From contig SSBO01000001.1 of NCBI GenBank assembly GCA_005281725.1, positions 438,956 to 502,955 on the forward strand: a stretch of 64,000 bases of DNA, in the 5' to 3' direction. The translations under genes and the position numbers were made by a program. Shown here in pieces: positions 961 through 49,700 of this stretch. This stretch comes from Wuchereria bancrofti (taxonomy: Eukaryota; Nematoda; Chromadorea; Rhabditida; Onchocercidae). The notes beneath the pieces were generated by a model, which did no database searches, was not told the DNA's origin, and saw only the letters and a program-made list of their open reading frames with translations. Within the stretch, counting starts at the first letter, position 1. Every line of letters begins with the position of its first letter.

Positions 961-997
961 ACATGTTACGTCCGTGACGTTGGTCTCATAACCCAAC

Positions 998-1013
998 GGC
1001 CCTCTTAAGGGCC
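998..1013 (+). terminator. Histone mRNA 3' stem-loop
   Basis: GGCCCTCTTAAGGGCC forms a 6-bp stem with a 4-nt loop, 38 nt after the H1 stop codon, followed by ACAAA. This matches the size, base composition and position of the metazoan histone 3' stem-loop bound by SLBP, which replaces polyadenylation on replication-dependent histone mRNAs. Confidence 0.9.
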
Positions 1014-1754
1014 ACAAATTTCATGAGTCATGCTATCTCTTCCGATCTTTCTGTTCCCTTTAGTTCAGGAGGATCATACTTCTGTTCTTGAAAATAAATT
1101 TTTGTCTAACCAATAAGTTGGAAAATTGTTATGCACTACAGTGATTTTGTTTCCAGATTAATCATTCACAATAAACGTCGATTATGGTACGGTATCATTC
1201 ATAGCCATGATGTGGTCGATGAATGTTGTTCCTAAGATGATTGATGAGAGAACTGTCAGAATATCTGTTAGTGATCATTATTGTAGAGTACTTGTACTTA
1301 AGCAATATGATTGTAATTTAGAACTACAAAAGAACCCAATATCGAAAGTGTACTGTCATCCAAATCGTGAGCACAATAAACTAATTATCATAAATCAGTT
1401 TATGAGGAAAATGTTCCAATTACATTACGTCAATATAAAGGATGTTTAAGTTCATTATAATTTTCGCGTAACTGTTCAAGTGTTAATTCCCCGTATTCCA
1501 GTTAATGTAGCTTCTTCATTTGATGCCCACATTGCTTGTCAAACTTGACCCACATAGTTTAACGTTTTTTATGACGATACCAGGAATGCCAAATATGCAT
1601 GTGTCAAAAAACAAAGAGATATATATTCAAACTTTATCATACAATAGAGATTGATGTACATATATTGCAGATAGGTACGCATCAAACAAAGATAAGCAAT
1701 CAATAAAAATGATGTAATCACTCAGAATTTTTCTCAAAATAGGAAGGGAATGTA
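1014..1754. other. Intergenic spacer between H1 and isw-1
   Basis: Spacer between two converging genes. It contains an open frame of 80 codons at 1207-1449 with no recognisable domain, which I do not call a gene. Nothing else is supported before the isw-1 3' UTR. Confidence 0.5.
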
Positions 1755-24170: not shown

Positions 24171-24506
24171 TTTCTCTTTCATTCATATCCTTACCGTAAA
24201 TCATTATCGTCCATACCTACACGTAAATTGAGATTTTTAGGATTATTAATCCGCTCGGTTAATTAATCCATCTATAAGTTAAAGTTAACAGCTTATTATT
24301 AAAGTATATAATTAGTGAATTTTCCTAAGCAACTAATTTCTATTCGTTTAAAATCAATTTTTCTTTTTTTTTTTTTGCTTCTATAAATACTATGAATGAG
24401 TTTTTTTTAACATATTTATTATTTATTATTACGTATATCGTATTTGAAATGAAATTTTGTTTATTTTGTTTGTTTGTTTTCTTAAATTTTTTTAGAAATA
24501 AAACGA

Positions 24507-27500
24507 ATGGTAGAGAATCATAACGAAACTTTTCATGCCAATTTGGATATTTTTCGATCGGATGATTGTATAAATTCAGGAACGAATACTAGCAATGATA
24601 GTAATGATAAAATGATTGTAAATCACAACAATAATTTATCAACAAACGAAAAAATTTCAACCGTTCTACCTATGACGGCAATTAATGAGACGAAAGAAAT
24701 TAACGGTGGAAATAATTTATTAAATTTAAGTAATATTGGTGAATATTCAATGGAAATGTTAGCACGATTAACATCATCAGCTATAATAAATCCAGAAAAT
24801 TATCATTATGATAATAATGATAATTGTACTAGTGCTAATGCTAGTGGTACTAGTACTGGTGATAATGGAATAAAAAAACAAAAATCACAAAAATTTAAAC
24901 CATCAAATGTTTGGCGACATTTTATGCGTTTATCTGATGGTAATGTACGTTGTATACATTGTGGCAAAATTTTAAAACGTAAAGATAGTTCAACAAAAAC
25001 AATGTGGGGACATTTACGAGCAATACATTCAAAAGATCGAGAACGAGAACGAGAACAACAACAACAACAACAACAACAGCAGCAGCAGATTGGTCGAGAT
25101 TATGATAAATTAAATGGAATTGAAATGCAAACAATAGATGAATTAGATCGTAGTGGAATTATTACAACACAAAATTGGCTTGAACAACGAGTGGGTATAT
25201 TATGTGATAAAACACAACAAACTCAATTGATAAATAATGAATTAATTGGACAATTGGATGAAACAACAACAACAACAACAACAACAACATCATCATCAAT
25301 TGAATCATTTCGTTGGGTTAGAAAATTATTTTTTTAATCATTATCTATTTTTTAGTTTAGAAAAGAAAAAAATTTATTTTTATTTTTAGTGAAAACTTTT
25401 TTTTTTTATAAAATTACTAATTTTTATATATTTTTATTTCTTTTATATTATGAATTTGGAGAAGAAAAAAAAACAAAAACAAAAATAAAAATATGTAAAT
25501 TTTTAGTCATCAACTCAACCATATAACAAACGTAATCGTTTATCATCATTATTTTCAAATGGTTATGCAACAAATTTAAAAAATATTAATCATAATACAA
25601 TTAATGATTGTATTTATAATGGTAATGGTTTGAATACAGCATTTACAACATTTGCACAATTAGATCATAACACTGAAGACGTATGTTTTAATTTTTTATT
25701 TTTATTAATTTTACATCCATCTCTTATCTTTATTATCATTTCTTTAAATAATACTTTCTTTTTTTTTTTTGTCCCTTTTTTGTAAGTTAAATTTTCCAAT
25801 AAATTTTGCAAGAAAAAAAAAAACTTATTAGCCAATTTAATTAATGATTAATATTTTGTTAAAATTTAAAATATAAAATTGAATATGATGCATCATTAAT
25901 TTTTATAGAAATCACGTAACTTCTTATCATCTATTCCACATACATCTGAAGTAATCAATATCACTGCTGGTTATACTGGTAATACTGATCATCGTCGTTT
26001 ACCATTTAATGGAAAGTTAGAAGAGGTAAATATTTTTTATTTATTATAAATGAATAATTAATTTATGAATGTAATGCTAATAATTAGATAATTGTCTAAA
26101 ATAAATAAATTCATTCTACTTCAATTCATTTTTTGTAAAATATTATAAATAAATTTTTGATAAAATGTTTAAGAATGATATAATTTAATTGAATTGATAA
26201 GTTCAATTAATAATATTTAACAATTCAATCATAAAGTTTATTTCTCACTTTCTTATTTCAATGATTTTTGTGGGAATGAATTTGATAAATTATTTTAGTT
26301 ATAGGATATTCTTAAATTTTACAAAGATTATTTATAAAGATTTATGAAGTTGAATTTTAGAATGGTAATGGTAATGCTGTAACAGCACTAAATGCTTCAA
26401 ACTCTTTGTTAACATCAATTCAAAATCATTTAAATGCTACTGATCAGTCTATTGCATCTCTGAGTACATCATTAGCACATATTTTAGATTCGTATGTTTC
26501 TTTTTTTTAATTATTTTCCATACTAATTACTACTATTTAACTACTAATATAATTCTTTATATATTAATTTTAATAATTTTCATCAAATTTTGCAATGTTT
26601 ATTCTTTGCATTTAGTTATTTTGCATATAAAATATAATAAATATTAATGAATGGAGGCTACATTTAAATTTAAAGCTTAAATAATTCTCTTTTTCTTTTG
26701 AACTTCATTTTTGAACTTTTGAATTTTATTAAGTTAAATTAGTGCTAGTATTTTTATTCCCACTAAGATATCATTTGAATTAAATTGCAATGAGTGTTTA
26801 TAGTATAAAACAGTAGTTAGAAGAGAAATTTTAAAAGTATTGGTTATGAATAAATCAAAGTAAACATTTGTTATTATCTTCATTATTCATAGTTATTTTT
26901 TAAATCTTTGATAATTTTATAAAGTAAATATAATGATAGTTTTTTATTCTTTTTTTTTTTCTTTCGTTAAAAATCAGTATTTGAATATTTGACTATAAAA
27001 AGACTCAAAGTGTAAGAAATTTTAAGATTTTCAATATTTGATCCTGATTCAATGGCAATATTTATGCGAACAGCTACTGATCTTGACTGTACCTTATCAT
27101 TTCACTGTCGTAATAATCAACCGCAACTATCTTTTGAGTCAAATCGTACCGCTGCTAATGGATTAAAGTAATATATATATTTTTTTATTATGCACTAATT
27201 AGGACTAATATCAATTCAAATTTTATTAATTTTTGAAATTAATAAGAAAATTAGAATTAAATAATAATAATAATAAAGATTTTCTTTTTTAATAATACTA
27301 ATTCTATTATTCATTATTGTTTCAATATTGGTTCATTAATGAATTTTAACACATTTATGAGTGTAAATTATTTACTTACTGTATTGCTAAAATAATAATA
27401 ATAATAATAAAATTATAAGTAATAAACACAAAAGTAATCACACTTTTTAGAGGTGTAAAAATATGTATGACTGAAATGGACGATGAAGTGCAAATTATAG

Positions 27501-34700: not shown

Positions 34701-37700
34701 ATATTGAATTCTGTAATAATTTAAATTATGAATTTAATGAATTCTTTCAAATTATATATTTATTTTAATTTCCTTAATTAATTAATCGAAAAAAAAAAGC
34801 TTTTTTCCAATAGTACTAAAATAAAGAAAAAAGTGAAAAAATTTGAACCTTAAATGTGGAAAAGTTATGTACACGTAAAACAGCTACCATTACACCGATA
34901 CAATTTTTTAATTCAGTACGAATTGGATTTCTATCAGTTTGCGTTTGAATCTACAAATTTAATGTTTCAGGAAGATTTTTAAATTAATTAAAAAAAGCAA
35001 AAATTTAGAAAAGTATTTATAAGAGAAATAAAATAACTAATTGACATTTAATGGTATGAATGTTTACATTATATTAGTTAATTACTGTAAAAAGCTTAAA
35101 CTAAAATGATTAAAATTGATCAAAATTTTTAATTATTTTTTCTTTTACATTAAAAGATCAAAAGAAATGAGTGTAAAATAAAATATTAAAATAGAATGAA
35201 AGTGAATAAAAGTGAAATGAGAACAGAGTTAATATTATTAGTCATTTAAAATGGAGAATTTTTGTGTAAGAAAATGAAAATACTTACCTTGGAGAGATAC
35301 TGACGGAAGAATGAATCGAGTAAATTAGTAACAATACTCCAATGCGAGAAATATGCATCAGGCGATACGTATTCCACGTACGTTGACAAATTAAACAAAA
35401 TTCGAGACAATCGATTAGGCCAATCTTCTAGGATATCCTAAAATAATTTCCTTTAATTTTATTCATTCTTATATTTTATTACTATTATTTATTTATTATT
35501 ATTATTTTTGTTATTATCGTATCATATTATATTATTTAAATAATTTAGTTGTTGTTCTGAAATTTTACTTCGTTAATTCAAATTTTACCAATTAACTAAC
35601 TTCAAGCAAATATTGAATAACAGAAACTGGATTTAATTCAGGAAAATCAGTTAAAGCAAATGATATTGTAGACCAAAATTGATTGACTCGTTCAATATTT
35701 GTATCAAATAATTGCAAAAATATTCCGCTTGATGACAGCTGAAATTTTATATTAATTAATTAATTATTTCATGTTAATTAATTAATTGCATAATCAAAAT
35801 AGTTATACATTTTTTTCATACAAACTAATGCAATTAATAAAATTCTAGACAGAAAAAGAAAACTTTTTGAGAAAAAAATGATGAAAATATTTGAAATTAT
35901 AGGAAAAATTATAAAAAAAAAAAATTTCTTATTGGCATAAAATGCAAACTTGATGTAATAAAATACGAATTAATTGTTTTGCAACACTTCGACAATTTCC
36001 AGCAACAAACATTAATGTGTCATGCCATGGATACAATGGTCTTTCAATTAATCTAAATATTATTTTATAATTATTACAATCTCTATCATAAATTCTTGAT
36101 AGTAACTTTATGTAATTTTTTTTTTTAACCTAAATATTATTAATCTAAATATTATTTTGTAGTTATTACATAATTTTTTTTTTTAAAAAGAAAACTTTTC
36201 ATTATATAATATTTTACTTTATTTATATAATATTTAACTTTATACAATACGATATAACTTTATACGACATTTTTATATTTATATTATTAATAAAAAATTT
36301 AGAACAGAAAAACACTTAACTTTATATGATACTTTTATATAATACAAATGAATGAATTAAGAAAAAAAAAAGATACTTTTATATAATATTTAATTTTATA
36401 TAATACTTTTATATGTATATATAAACTTTTTTTTTAAATTTTTTAAATTCATTTTTCTTTTCTAATTATTATTATTTAACCTGGTGACAGTATTAATAAT
36501 ACGAAAGAGAATTGGAGCTGCCATCGCTGGTTCTCGATGAACAAATGTTTCTAAAGCAATCATACACAGTGATAAGGTTTCTTCATCAAAATTTCCTAAT
36601 AATTCATTGCAATAACCGCATCGATACGTACGTCTATCCATGATTACATTATTTGTTGCTATAAATAATAATATACGTTTGTTTAATATTTACGTAAATA
36701 TAACTTACGTCTATTCATGATTACATTATTTGTTGCTATAAATAATAATATACGTTTGTTTAATATTTACGTAAATATAACGTACGTCTATTCATCATTA
36801 CATTATTTGTTGCTATAAATAATAATATACATTTGCCTTATATTTACGTTATTTGTTGCAATAAATATAACGCACGTCTATTTATTTATCATTTCTATTT
36901 AATTCTTACTAATAATTAAAAAAAAAATTATTCATGATAAATTATTTTTAAATTAATTAACATTATAATATACACATCTATGCATATAAATTATTGTAAA
37001 GAAACTTTTTCGAAAACGACGTTTTGTACAATCCATTTGCTTCTTTTTGCCATTCTCAATACCTTCTTCTTCAATTGCTTCTAATTTTCCTTCATTTACC
37101 TAAAATAAATAACACTGTCATTATATTTCATACATATATAATTAATCACAATTTAAAAAAAATTGAAAATTAACTGAAAATTTAATGGTAAAATAAAATT
37201 TTGATATTATGTAATTTGAAGAAAAATTTTTTATTTCAATTATTAATGATCGAATAATTTGTAAATAATAATATAAGAAAATTTACAATAAAATAATTTT
37301 AATTTCTTCCTCAAAAATTCTTTTGCATTTTAAATTACAAAGTTGAATTAAAATTATTCAAATTCATTCTCTTTCATTTTAATACATAAAGTCTTTTTTT
37401 TTTTCATATTATTATGATTTTTATAAATATTCCTAATCATATAACTTACATCAATAACAGAATTAGTTTGTGGACATAGAACAGTAAGTGTTTCAGGTCG
37501 ATGTAACTTATCAGTACCACAATCATTTTCTAATTCTTCTTCATCAGAACTTGATAATGGATCCATTTCAATTTTTATTGGTTGTGCTTTCATATTACAA
37601 ATATGAACCTTTAAAAAAAAACAAAAATTAAAAAATTAAAAATTCAGCAAAATTAAAATTATAAAAAATATTGAACAAAAAATTCACTGAACAAAACAAA

Positions 37701-46700: not shown

Positions 46701-49700
46701 ATCATGGAAACATGAAGTGATATATGTTCCTCCTCTAAACCATTCTCATTATTTCGCTTTAATTCCATTTGTGATATTCGTGAAGCACATTTTGAAAATG
46801 CATCAAGTAAAATTGGAAATGGTATTGAAATCTCCATTAATGATAAAGCCTAGAATTAATCCATTTCTTATGATTTCTTTTTTTGATTATAATTTACAAA
46901 AATAATTGGCTTATTATCAAAAAAAAAAAAAAAATTTCAAGATAGTTTTTTCTTCATTTTTTGCAAAATTTCCTTTAAAAAATTGAATCAAATAAATGTT
47001 ATCAATAAATTTATCGCATTTTCATATTTCTATTAAATGCTTTATTTATAAAATTGAAGCTTTATTCATATGAATTTATTACTTATTTGATCATTCCAAA
47101 TCTCTTTAAAATTTAAGTAAAAGAATTTTAATTAATTCCAAAAATTTATAATTTTCTATTAATCAAATCAAAAAATAAAAATTCACATAAATCCAATCAA
47201 GTGCATTTGAAATACTTCTTTCATCGCCTGTTATCAAATGATCAGTAATAAACTGATATAATTGCTCATCATTGAATGGTAATGGACGAAGATCTGGTTC
47301 AAATATTTTGCTATAAACAAAAAACGTTTGAAAAATAAATTTCCAAATTATTTCAAGGCTAATATAGAAGATGAATGATAAATTAATTGTAAAAAAATAA
47401 AATAAATGCCTTTAATTAATTAATTAGTCAATATAGAAGATGAATAATTATATCGAAATGATAGTTATTAATTAAATTAATTGTAGAAAAATAAAATAAA
47501 TGCTTGTAATTAATTAATTAGTCAATATAGAAGATGAATAATTATATCGAAAAGATAGTTATTAATTAAATTAATTGTAGAAAAATAAAATAAATGCTTT
47601 TAATTAATTAATTAGTCAATATAGAAGATGAATGATTATATCGAAAAGATAGTTATTAACTAAATTAATTGTAGAAAAACAAAATAAATGCTTTAATTAA
47701 TTAATTAATTAATTAATAATACCTAAATAGTATCTTAAATTCAGAAAAATCATCATCTTCCATTAAATCACAAATACTTTGCATCCATTGTGGTATTAAT
47801 CGATTCCACATACTCAACGTGATAATATCATATGGCATTATTGCTAATAACTTATAAAGTCCATCACGCATTTGTTCTTTTTTTGTTGAAAGTCTATCCC
47901 AGACGCCACCAACCTGAACGGAAAAAAAAAAGTATTTCAAAAATAAGTCAAATTATTTAAATTACAATTGCATTACATTATTTGGCAATAAATTAATTTT
48001 GAAGATTTTTCTTTCATAAATATTTTCAATGTAATAAAATATTTTAATAATATTATCATTCAAAATTTAAAAACTTTTATAATTATATTAGTCAAGTTAA
48101 ATATTAATTATTTTAATTTTAATTTAAAAAAATCTTAATTTAATAAAAAAAANAAAAAAAACCTAATTTTCAATTAAAATATAATGTGCAAAAGAAAATC
48201 ACCTGAGCATATTCCGGTGGATTTGGCATTAAAGTTTCAAGAAAATTCTCATAATGATTGATAATTGCCAAATTAATCCAATCTAATACAAACTGAAAAA
48301 AAGGAAAAAAAGTAAAAACTTATAATTCATTAATTGAAATGTGTAAAATTTCACATACATATTTAATTTAAAATATTAAATACAAAATAACAAAAAAAAA
48401 AGGAGAGAAATCACTTATTTATGCAATCATCAATCATTTATTTTCATTTTTAATATGAATGAAAAAAGGAAAAATCCACCATTAATTTATTTCAAGNAAA
48501 TGTGTAAAATTTCACATACATATTTAATTTAAAATATTAAATACAAAATAACAAAAAAAAAAGGAGAGAAATCACTTATTTATGCAATCATCAATCATTT
48601 ATTTTCATTTTTAATATGAATGAAAAAAGGAAAAATCCACCATTAATTTATTTCAAACAAATAATTAATTTTTTTTTTCTTATTAAATTATTTCGTTTTT
48701 CATACATTTACGGTTTTTTTCATTTGCAAAAATGTTTAATATTTATATTACAAAATTTTCATTCCATTTCATTTCATTTCAGATGAAACGATAGATTAAA
48801 ATAATATCATTAATTAACATTTTTAGCATATTTTTTCTTTTAACATTATTAATAATCATTATTCTCTTCTTCTTTCTCCTTCATCCCCTCTCCTTCCCTC
48901 TCTCTCTCTCCCTCTCCCTCTCTTTCCTTTTTTTTCATTATCTTAAAGCTTGCAATTTTGTAAATACGAAATTAGTAATGTATTCACAAAACGATCAGTT
49001 ATACATTGCACATAAAATAAATATATTAACAACTTGAATTTGCTTCCTTTGTTTATTTTGATTAGAAATTTATATCAATTATCAGTGTTATCATGATAAG
49101 ATTACGAGTAGTATTTACACTAATAATATTGTTTGATTTTACTGATTTTCTTAATCAGTGCAAAATTTGCTTTCTTTCAATTAATATTTTCATTTACTCA
49201 AAATCATATCATTTCATCAAATAATTCAAATGATAAGAACTAATCAAAGGAGTGATAATTGATAAAATAAAATTATCAGTGTAATTTACATCAGTTCTAA
49301 GTTGCTCCAATGCAGCACCAATAGAATCATTAGGTAATAGAGCGGTCGTTGCAAACCATTGTAATAACATTGACATCATATAAGCAATCGCTTGCTAAAA
49401 CAAAAAAAAAAAAATTCGAATTCTTATTAATTTAATAATCGAAATTCATTTGTATTGATTATTTTATGATTCAAAAATAAAAATTTTTTTTTTTACATTT
49501 GACAAACATTTCTTTAGAAATTTTTACAAATTTTGAATGGAATTTTGATTATTCAAATTTGTTCATAGATTAAAAATCATTTCAAGTTTGCTTAATATAT
49601 TATATTTTATCTTATTTAATAAGCATATTTAGCTTATTTATTATTGATATGACTTATATTATACTTAATTATAATAGCAATAATTTTAAAATTCTAAAAA

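What the first reader, a model, noticed from the sequence alone, without database searches (positions are those of the whole stretch)
36631..36850. Tandem duplication that minted two frame-preserving 27-nt microexon candidates in unc-79
A 77-bp unit straddling the 3' splice site of exon 36481-36658 is repeated about 2.9 times into the intron. Each intronic copy keeps TTTATAG, then 27 nt of exon-derived sequence, then a donor. In the middle copy the exon sequence GTACGT has become GTAAGT, a textbook donor. The 27-nt length and phase leave the frame intact, adding nine residues per copy. This looks like microexon birth caught in the act in a neuronal channel subunit, a gene class where microexons matter.
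Basis: partly seen in the sequence, partly recalled or inferred. Interest (0 to 1): 0.75.

Follow-up and report, generated by a model that had tools for sequence, protein, structure and literature searches.

The report
Duplicated splice junction in worm unc-79
In a parasitic roundworm's unc-79 gene, a short stretch spanning the start of one exon was copied into the neighbouring intron, giving two look-alike mini-exons that could each add nine amino acids; the same kind of event is known from a potato gene, and whether the worm uses the copies is untested.

Summary
A 77-bp unit across the 3' splice site of unc-79 exon 36658-36481 is repeated 2.9 times (36626-36849, 94%), with decayed pieces of an older copy upstream, to 36882. 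Copies A (36812-36786) and B (36735-36709) each carry the acceptor, 27 exon-derived nt and an exon-derived donor; GTAAGT is a change found in B only. Splicing 37005 to 36659 reproduces the orthologous protein at the junction. Of 11 orthologs aligned, 10 cover the junction; all 10 have it direct and none has the insert, so the exon is the source. The candidate sites fall within the native range, and B has no equal in 30 other introns. Against regulated "microexon birth": one crossing of a 3' splice site is what this gene's four arrays predict (0.93 expected, 1 seen), frame preservation is a 1-in-3 chance, the older copy has lost its AG, none of 31 native donors has C at -1, and no held protein shows inclusion. 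A published potato case has the same anatomy. Best reading: a recent, probably neutral duplication that may be spliced as an optional 9-residue insert in a disordered linker, the direct junction being the main isoform. Splicing could not be tested here.

The parts
37006..37099 (-). unc-79 exon upstream of the array (ends in phase 1; donor AAA|GTTTCT at 37005)
   Evidence: Spliced against ortholog P0001; donor score 3.52, 3 of 30 native donors lower
36481..36658 (-). unc-79 exon downstream (178 nt), source of the copied sequence; encodes TNNVIMDRRTYRCGYC at its start
   Evidence: Match to PDB sequences named unc-79 homolog, best E 6.6e-7; direct junction reproduces RKTTNNVI of P0001 exactly
36626..36849 (-). 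77-bp tandem array, 2.9 copies, across the 3' splice site
   Evidence: TRF score 399, 94% matches
36709..36735 (-). candidate microexon B, 27 nt (adds 9 residues)
   Evidence: Open in frame; acceptor 9.82, donor 4.92; no equal in 30 other introns, 14,388 b
36786..36812 (-). candidate microexon A, 27 nt (adds 9 residues)
   Evidence: Open in frame; acceptor 9.82, donor 3.58; one equal in 30 other introns
36703..36708 (-). donor of copy B, GTAAGT (derived from exon GTACGT)
   Evidence: B-only change at unit position 31; 6 of 30 native donors score lower
36780..36785 (-). donor of copy A, GTACGT (as in the exon)
   Evidence: 4 of 30 native donors score lower
36659..36665 (-). native acceptor TTTATAG
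   Evidence: 27 of 30 native acceptors score lower
36736..36742 (-). copied acceptor of B, identical to native
36813..36819 (-). copied acceptor of A, identical to native
36847..36867 (-). decayed outer copy of the splice junction; AG lost (TTG)
   Evidence: 2 of 21 mismatches; 0.07 matches of the pattern expected by chance in the window
36862..36882 (-). decayed outer copy of the donor side, GTGCGT
   Evidence: 1 of 21 mismatches; 0.02 matches expected; local alignment score 40 against a maximum of 33 in 494 random pieces

Best explanation
Repeated tandem duplication, probably by unequal exchange or slippage (inferred), copied the 3' splice junction of an unc-79 intron together with the first ~33 nt of the exon back into the intron. 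Each of the two recent copies therefore carries the native acceptor, 27 nt of coding sequence and a donor recruited from the exon. The main mRNA uses the direct junction 37005 to 36659. The copies are decoy junctions: most transcripts skip them, and a minority may include one or both as a frame-neutral 9- or 18-residue insert in a disordered linker. They are probably neutral or mildly harmful and have no regulated function. Shown: the array, its direction, the signals, the open frames, the ortholog junction. Inferred: the duplication mechanism, skipping, and neutrality.
For: Direct junction gives the orthologous protein exactly at the junction; of 11 orthologs aligned (of 144 held), 10 cover it and 10 of 10 have it without an insert. 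The closest ortholog, P0001 (97.5% over 1661 aa compared), comes from a 6,632-nt contig and has 2,085 aa, while the gene spans about 27 kb here, so that contig must be spliced RNA (inference). Four tandem arrays, this one included, lie in or at introns of this gene, and 7 in 170 kb sampled elsewhere. Random placement of four arrays of these widths predicts 0.93 crossings of a 3' splice site, 1 seen. The older copy has lost its acceptor. 0 of 144 held proteins contain NRPTN, the string that inclusion would create. The insertion point lies in a low-confidence linker (P0126 residues 98-170, pLDDT below 50; junction residue 162).
Against: The three acceptors are identical and strong (27 of 30 native acceptors score lower), and both copied donors score at or above the native donor of this intron when that intron is left out of training (A 3.58, B 4.92, native 3.52); with it included, A is below native and B about equal (3.43, 4.77, 4.72). 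So skipping is not guaranteed. The substitution in B's donor improves it. If an upstream acceptor were used without its donor, an in-frame TAA would follow, so the array is not obviously harmless.
Confidence: 0.62

Rival explanations
1. One or both copies are real cassette microexons, included in a sizeable share of unc-79 mRNA, B above all because of its improved donor.
For: Length 27 nt and phase 1-to-1, no stops; B combines acceptor 9.82 and donor 4.92, a combination found 0 times in 30 other introns (14,388 b). In C. elegans, two microexons are reported with flanking introns as short as 49 nt (passages of PMC8378409); here the downstream or intervening intron would be 50 nt. The same anatomy was shown by RNA reads to be spliced in potato.
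Against: No protein with the insert found (the library's 90% clustering could hide some). C at -1 in 0 of 31 native donors; the shortest of 31 native introns used here is 163 nt, so a 50-nt intron is outside the range of this gene; at laxer thresholds pseudo-microexons do occur in the other introns (2, 6 and 16 at three cut-offs).
Confidence: 0.22
2. The copied acceptors act as poison sites: the spliceosome sometimes picks 36812 or 36735 without the following donor, giving an extended exon with a premature stop and lowering unc-79 output.
For: Acceptors A and B equal the native one in score; both extended reads meet an in-frame TAA 16 codons after the junction codon (36762-36760 for A, 36685-36683 for B).
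Against: Each acceptor is followed by a usable donor that can remove the stop; a large loss would probably be selected against (inference).
Confidence: 0.1
3. The extra copies are an assembly artefact.
For: Short near-identical tandem units can be assembly errors; no reads were available here.
Against: Copies differ from each other at 2 of 77 positions, B differs from the exon at 2 positions, and an older diverged copy sits next to them; no N in 36301-37260.
Confidence: 0.05
4. The direction is reversed: the start of the exon was made from an intronic repeat.
For: None beyond the homology itself.
Against: Seven filarial orthologs at this place read TTNNVIMD(R/K)R or close variants (ATNNVIMDRR, STSNVMMDRR, TTNHVIMDKR), and Thelazia VGNTVNVDRS, all without the insert.
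Confidence: 0.01

Closest known systems
[quoted passage not shown] abstract and Results and Discussion section read)
   Same: Duplication crosses the intron-exon boundary; acceptor and upstream signals inherited from the parent intron; donor (GTAAG) recruited from the copied exonic piece; the paper also notes another tandem duplication (83 bp) within the first intron of that gene.
   Different: Potato splicing is shown by 106 RNA-seq reads and dated by relatives; here splicing is not shown. Here there are two full copies, the in-between exon is 27 nt, and one donor was improved by a substitution.
Tandem genomic duplication model with AGGT (reviewed in PMC3443670, passages seen; attributed to Rogers 1989 in PMC4974935)
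   Same: Tandem duplication supplies new donor and acceptor.
   Different: No AGGT site: the acceptor is the real parental 3' splice site and the donor is a cryptic exonic GT.
C. elegans neuronal microexons (PMC8378409 and PMC12287369, passages seen)
   Same: Length of 27 nt or less, frame preserving, neuronal gene; short flanking introns tolerated in two cases.
   Different: Those are seen in RNA, and the unc-13 one is highly conserved; these copies are absent from the aligned orthologs and not shown in RNA. The main text of neither paper holds the term unc-79.
Tandem exon duplication with mutually exclusive splicing (PMC9741552 and PMC9013439, search listing only)
   Same: New exon copy made by local tandem duplication.
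   Different: Only about 33 of 178 nt of the exon were copied, and the copies are additive in frame, not substitutes.

Membership tests
Intron gain by tandem duplication across an intron-exon boundary | Duplicated unit crosses an intron-exon boundary | tested here: met
   Unit holds 44-50 intronic and 27-33 exonic nt
Intron gain by tandem duplication across an intron-exon boundary | New donor comes from previously exonic sequence; acceptor inherited | tested here: met
   GTACGT in exon and A, GTAAGT in B; acceptors identical in all three
Intron gain by tandem duplication across an intron-exon boundary | New intron removed from mRNA | not testable with these tools
   No RNA reads of this species; no held protein shows the insert
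Intron gain by tandem duplication across an intron-exon boundary | Absent from close relatives | tested here: inconclusive
   Insert absent from 10 of 10 ortholog proteins that cover the place, but intron DNA of relatives was not available
Microexon | Length of 27 or 30 nt or less, frame preserving | tested here: met
   27 nt, phase 1 to phase 1, no stop
Microexon | Splice sites within the native range | tested here: met
   A and B donors above 4 and 6 of 30 native, acceptors above 27 of 30; but C at -1 in 0 of 31
Microexon | Included in mRNA, usually in neurons | not testable with these tools
   No RNA data
Microexon | Conserved across species (typical, not required of a young one) | tested here: not met
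   0 of 10 orthologs that cover the place have it
Tandem exon duplication (mutually exclusive exons) | Whole exon duplicated | tested here: not met
   About 33 of 178 nt copied

The most novel reading that the evidence does not exclude
The array is a frame-safe acceptor ladder. Whichever of the three identical acceptors is chosen first, a donor 27 nt downstream of each copied one allows the growing exon to be re-spliced to the next acceptor, so every such path ends in frame and adds 0, 9 or 18 residues to a disordered linker of a sodium-leak channel subunit. It would be a natural example of serial re-splicing and of a young, still neutral-to-useful microexon pair made by junction duplication, with an older rung already lost by decay of its AG.
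Probability: 0.18. Interest if true: 0.6.

Novelty: new member of a known kind. Interest (0 to 1): 0.32.

Why it matters
[quoted passage not shown] If RNA shows inclusion here, this locus would add an animal case in which a complete splice unit, with a donor recruited from a copied exon edge, appeared by duplication, and it would let one measure how a young microexon is tolerated: the same acceptor three times, two donor strengths, one dead copy as a control. I did not search for all comparable animal cases. If RNA shows only the direct junction, it is a clean example of how the spliceosome ignores identical decoy acceptors.

Tried and rejected
Reverse direction (exon start made from an intronic repeat): rejected by orthologs. 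Dispersed element or satellite: rejected, the unit matches only this place in the own genome; the reverse-strand match at the same place (66% identity) I put down to palindromic AT-rich pieces such as TATTTACGTAAATA. RNA structure of the array: somewhat more stable than shuffles (z -2.19, 3 of 100 shuffles at least as stable), taken as too weak to use. Alternative donor at 36975 (GTGTAT) for the upstream exon: open and in frame but does not match the orthologs. Search for inserted isoforms among short (about 59-189 aa) and mid-length (about 264-840 aa) proteins: 5 and 19 hits, none with the insert; weak as a negative because the library is clustered at 90%. The four rows of acceptors listed first are off by one base and were discarded; the rows below them and one search are used. 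Of 35 exon pairs, 30 passed the filter, and one of the five that failed was added by eye (32263/32038), giving the 31 introns. Species: the direct-junction translation contains all 158 residues of Wuchereria bancrofti fragment P0125, and P0001 differs from that fragment at 1 of 158; I infer the Wuchereria/Brugia group and did not settle the species.

Full report
WHAT IS THERE. On the minus strand, tandem repeat analysis finds a 77-bp unit repeated 2.9 times at 36626-36849 with 94% matches. Reading 5' to 3' on the minus strand: upstream exon 37099-37006; intron from 37005; a decayed outer copy; copy A (exon-like 36812-36786, then 50 nt); copy B (exon-like 36735-36709, then 50 nt); then the true exon 36658-36481. 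A and B differ at 2 of 77 positions. B differs from the exon at unit positions 21 (A for G) and 31 (A for C) before homology ends at about position 33. The change at 21 is shared by A and B, so it probably arose before they split; the change at 31 is the donor change GTACGT to GTAAGT and is unique to B.

The junction sequence TATTTATAGCAACAAATAATG has a fourth match at 36847-36867 with two mismatches, one of which turns TAG into TTG and so destroys the acceptor; 0.07 matches of the pattern are expected by chance in the window. The donor-side sequence has an outer match at 36862-36882 with GTGCGT; 0.02 expected. A local alignment of the upstream piece with the unit scores 40, against a maximum of 33 in 494 random pieces of the window. 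The array is thus older and longer than described, and its oldest part has lost a splice signal.

THE GENE. The two exons joined match 3 distinct PDB sequences, all named unc-79 homolog, at E 6.6e-7 to 1e-6; the match covers residues from 42 on and leaves the linker before it unaligned. The joined reading frames of the region match the same three with E as low as 2.1e-139. 346 homologs were found, 120 listed. When the window was spliced against the closest ortholog P0001, 30 of 35 exon pairs passed the filter, and for the pair in question 37005/36659 gives RKTTNNVI, identical to P0001. Identity to P0001 is 97.5% over the 1661 residues compared. The direct-junction translation contains all 158 residues of the Wuchereria bancrofti fragment P0125, so the worm probably belongs to the Wuchereria/Brugia group (inference).

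DIRECTION AND ANCESTRAL STATE. I aligned 11 of the 144 proteins held, the nearest relatives, with the double-insert isoform. Ten cover the junction (P0142 does not); 10 of 10 have the direct junction and 0 of 10 the insert. The filarial ones read TTNNVIMDRR or close variants at this place, so the exon is the source of the copies. Among all 144 proteins, 47 carry the downstream motif that I searched for, 45 of them with at least 20 residues before it; none of the 47 shows a duplicated TNNV-like segment, and 0 of 144 contain NRPTN, the string that inclusion would create (40 of the 47 were printed). Two targeted protein searches returned 5 and 19 proteins, none with the insert. The library is clustered at 90% identity, so an inserted isoform could be hidden behind P0001. 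P0001 is encoded on a contig of 6,632 nt although the gene covers about 27 kb here; I infer that it comes from RNA and shows the direct junction in mRNA of a close relative.

SPLICE SIGNALS. Weight matrices were built from the introns of this gene, leaving out the one in question (30 of 31). Acceptors A, B and native are identical at 9.82, above 27 of 30 native sites. Donors: native 37005 3.52 (3 of 30 lower), A 3.58 (4 of 30), B 4.92 (6 of 30), outer copy 2.76 (2 of 30), the GTACGT inside the exon 2.05 (1 of 30). Of 375 GT inside the other introns, 19 score as high as B, 60 as high as A and 62 as high as the native donor; of 395 AG, 3 score as high as these acceptors. A pseudo-microexon of 30 nt or less with both scores at least those of B occurs 0 times in 30 other introns (14,388 b); at the thresholds of A, once; at three laxer pairs of thresholds 2, 6 and 16 times. 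So the combined signals, of B above all, exceed the background, while the donors alone are unremarkable. With the intron itself in the training set, A falls below the native donor and B equals it (3.43, 4.77, 4.72). Against use: C at -1 occurs in 0 of 31 native donors, GTAAGT is used in 1 of 31, and the shortest native intron used here is 163 nt whereas the new ones would be 50 nt. In C. elegans, two microexons with flanking introns as small as 49 nt are reported (passages of PMC8378409).

CONSEQUENCES. Inclusion of A, B or both keeps the frame through the following exons. Use of acceptor A or B without the following donor leads to an in-frame TAA 16 codons after the junction codon (36762-36760 for A, 36685-36683 for B). 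The junction corresponds to residue 162 of Onchocerca ochengi P0126, inside a stretch (98-170) with predicted confidence below 50, between better-predicted helical regions; the model rests on an alignment of 36 of the 144 proteins held. Extra residues there are probably tolerated (inference).

HOW SURPRISING. Seven arrays of period 40 or more were found in 170 kb sampled elsewhere (17 stretches of 10 kb, of 20 asked) and 5 in the 64-kb window; 4 of these 5, this one included, lie in or at unc-79 introns (positions). Placing the four at random in the gene gives crossing probabilities for a 3' splice site of 0.060, 0.212, 0.334 and 0.326, sum 0.93, against 1 observed (only 31 acceptors used, so this is a low estimate). 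That the array crosses a junction therefore needs no selection. That the donor lies in the right phase is a 1-in-3 chance, and stop-free copies are expected after so few changes (argument, not a test).

MECHANISM. The likely course is: an early exchange or slippage copied the junction region upstream; that copy decayed, including its AG; one or two later rounds of 77-bp duplication made A and B. Each recent copy is a complete splice unit because the acceptor came with the intron end and the donor was latent in the exon. I think most mRNA uses 37005/36659, with low inclusion of B possible. The bold alternative is serial re-splicing along a frame-safe ladder of acceptors.

WHAT IS KNOWN. The potato RdRp case (PMC4974935; abstract and Results and Discussion read) has the same anatomy: tandem duplication across an intron-exon boundary, inherited acceptor, GTAAG donor recruited from the copied exonic piece, supported there by 106 RNA reads. 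The wider model is reviewed in PMC3443670 (passages). This locus is therefore a candidate new member of a known kind, not a new kind. In the literature searches no listed paper holds unc-79 together with microexon or with filarial terms (20 of 120 and 8 of 3,504 matching papers were listed), so this is only a weak statement about print.

VERDICT. Observation confirmed and extended; interpretation partly supported; splicing untested.

Noticed in passing
window 47379-47707, intron 47722-47312 (-): A 94-bp unit repeated 3.5 times (95%) fills most of this unc-79 intron without touching its splice sites.
   Followed up: partly
window 48336-48656, intron 49289-48293 (-): A 161-bp tandem duplication with 99% matches, so probably very recent.
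   Followed up: no
window 40799-40611 (-): A frame matching an extra segment (ELKYG...KHLQ) present in orthologs P0003, P0043 and in part P0006 but absent from P0001, P0002, P0004 and P0005: a likely cassette exon of unc-79, basic and IQ-like in look (motif name recalled).
   Followed up: partly
window 993-1038 (+): Histone 3' UTR stem-loop (RF00032, 34.3 bits against a cut-off of 34), so a histone gene probably ends just upstream (inference).
   Followed up: no
window 24486-25337 (+): Open frame of 283 aa with a BED zinc finger (PF02892, E 2.2e-13) and glutamine and threonine runs.
   Followed up: no
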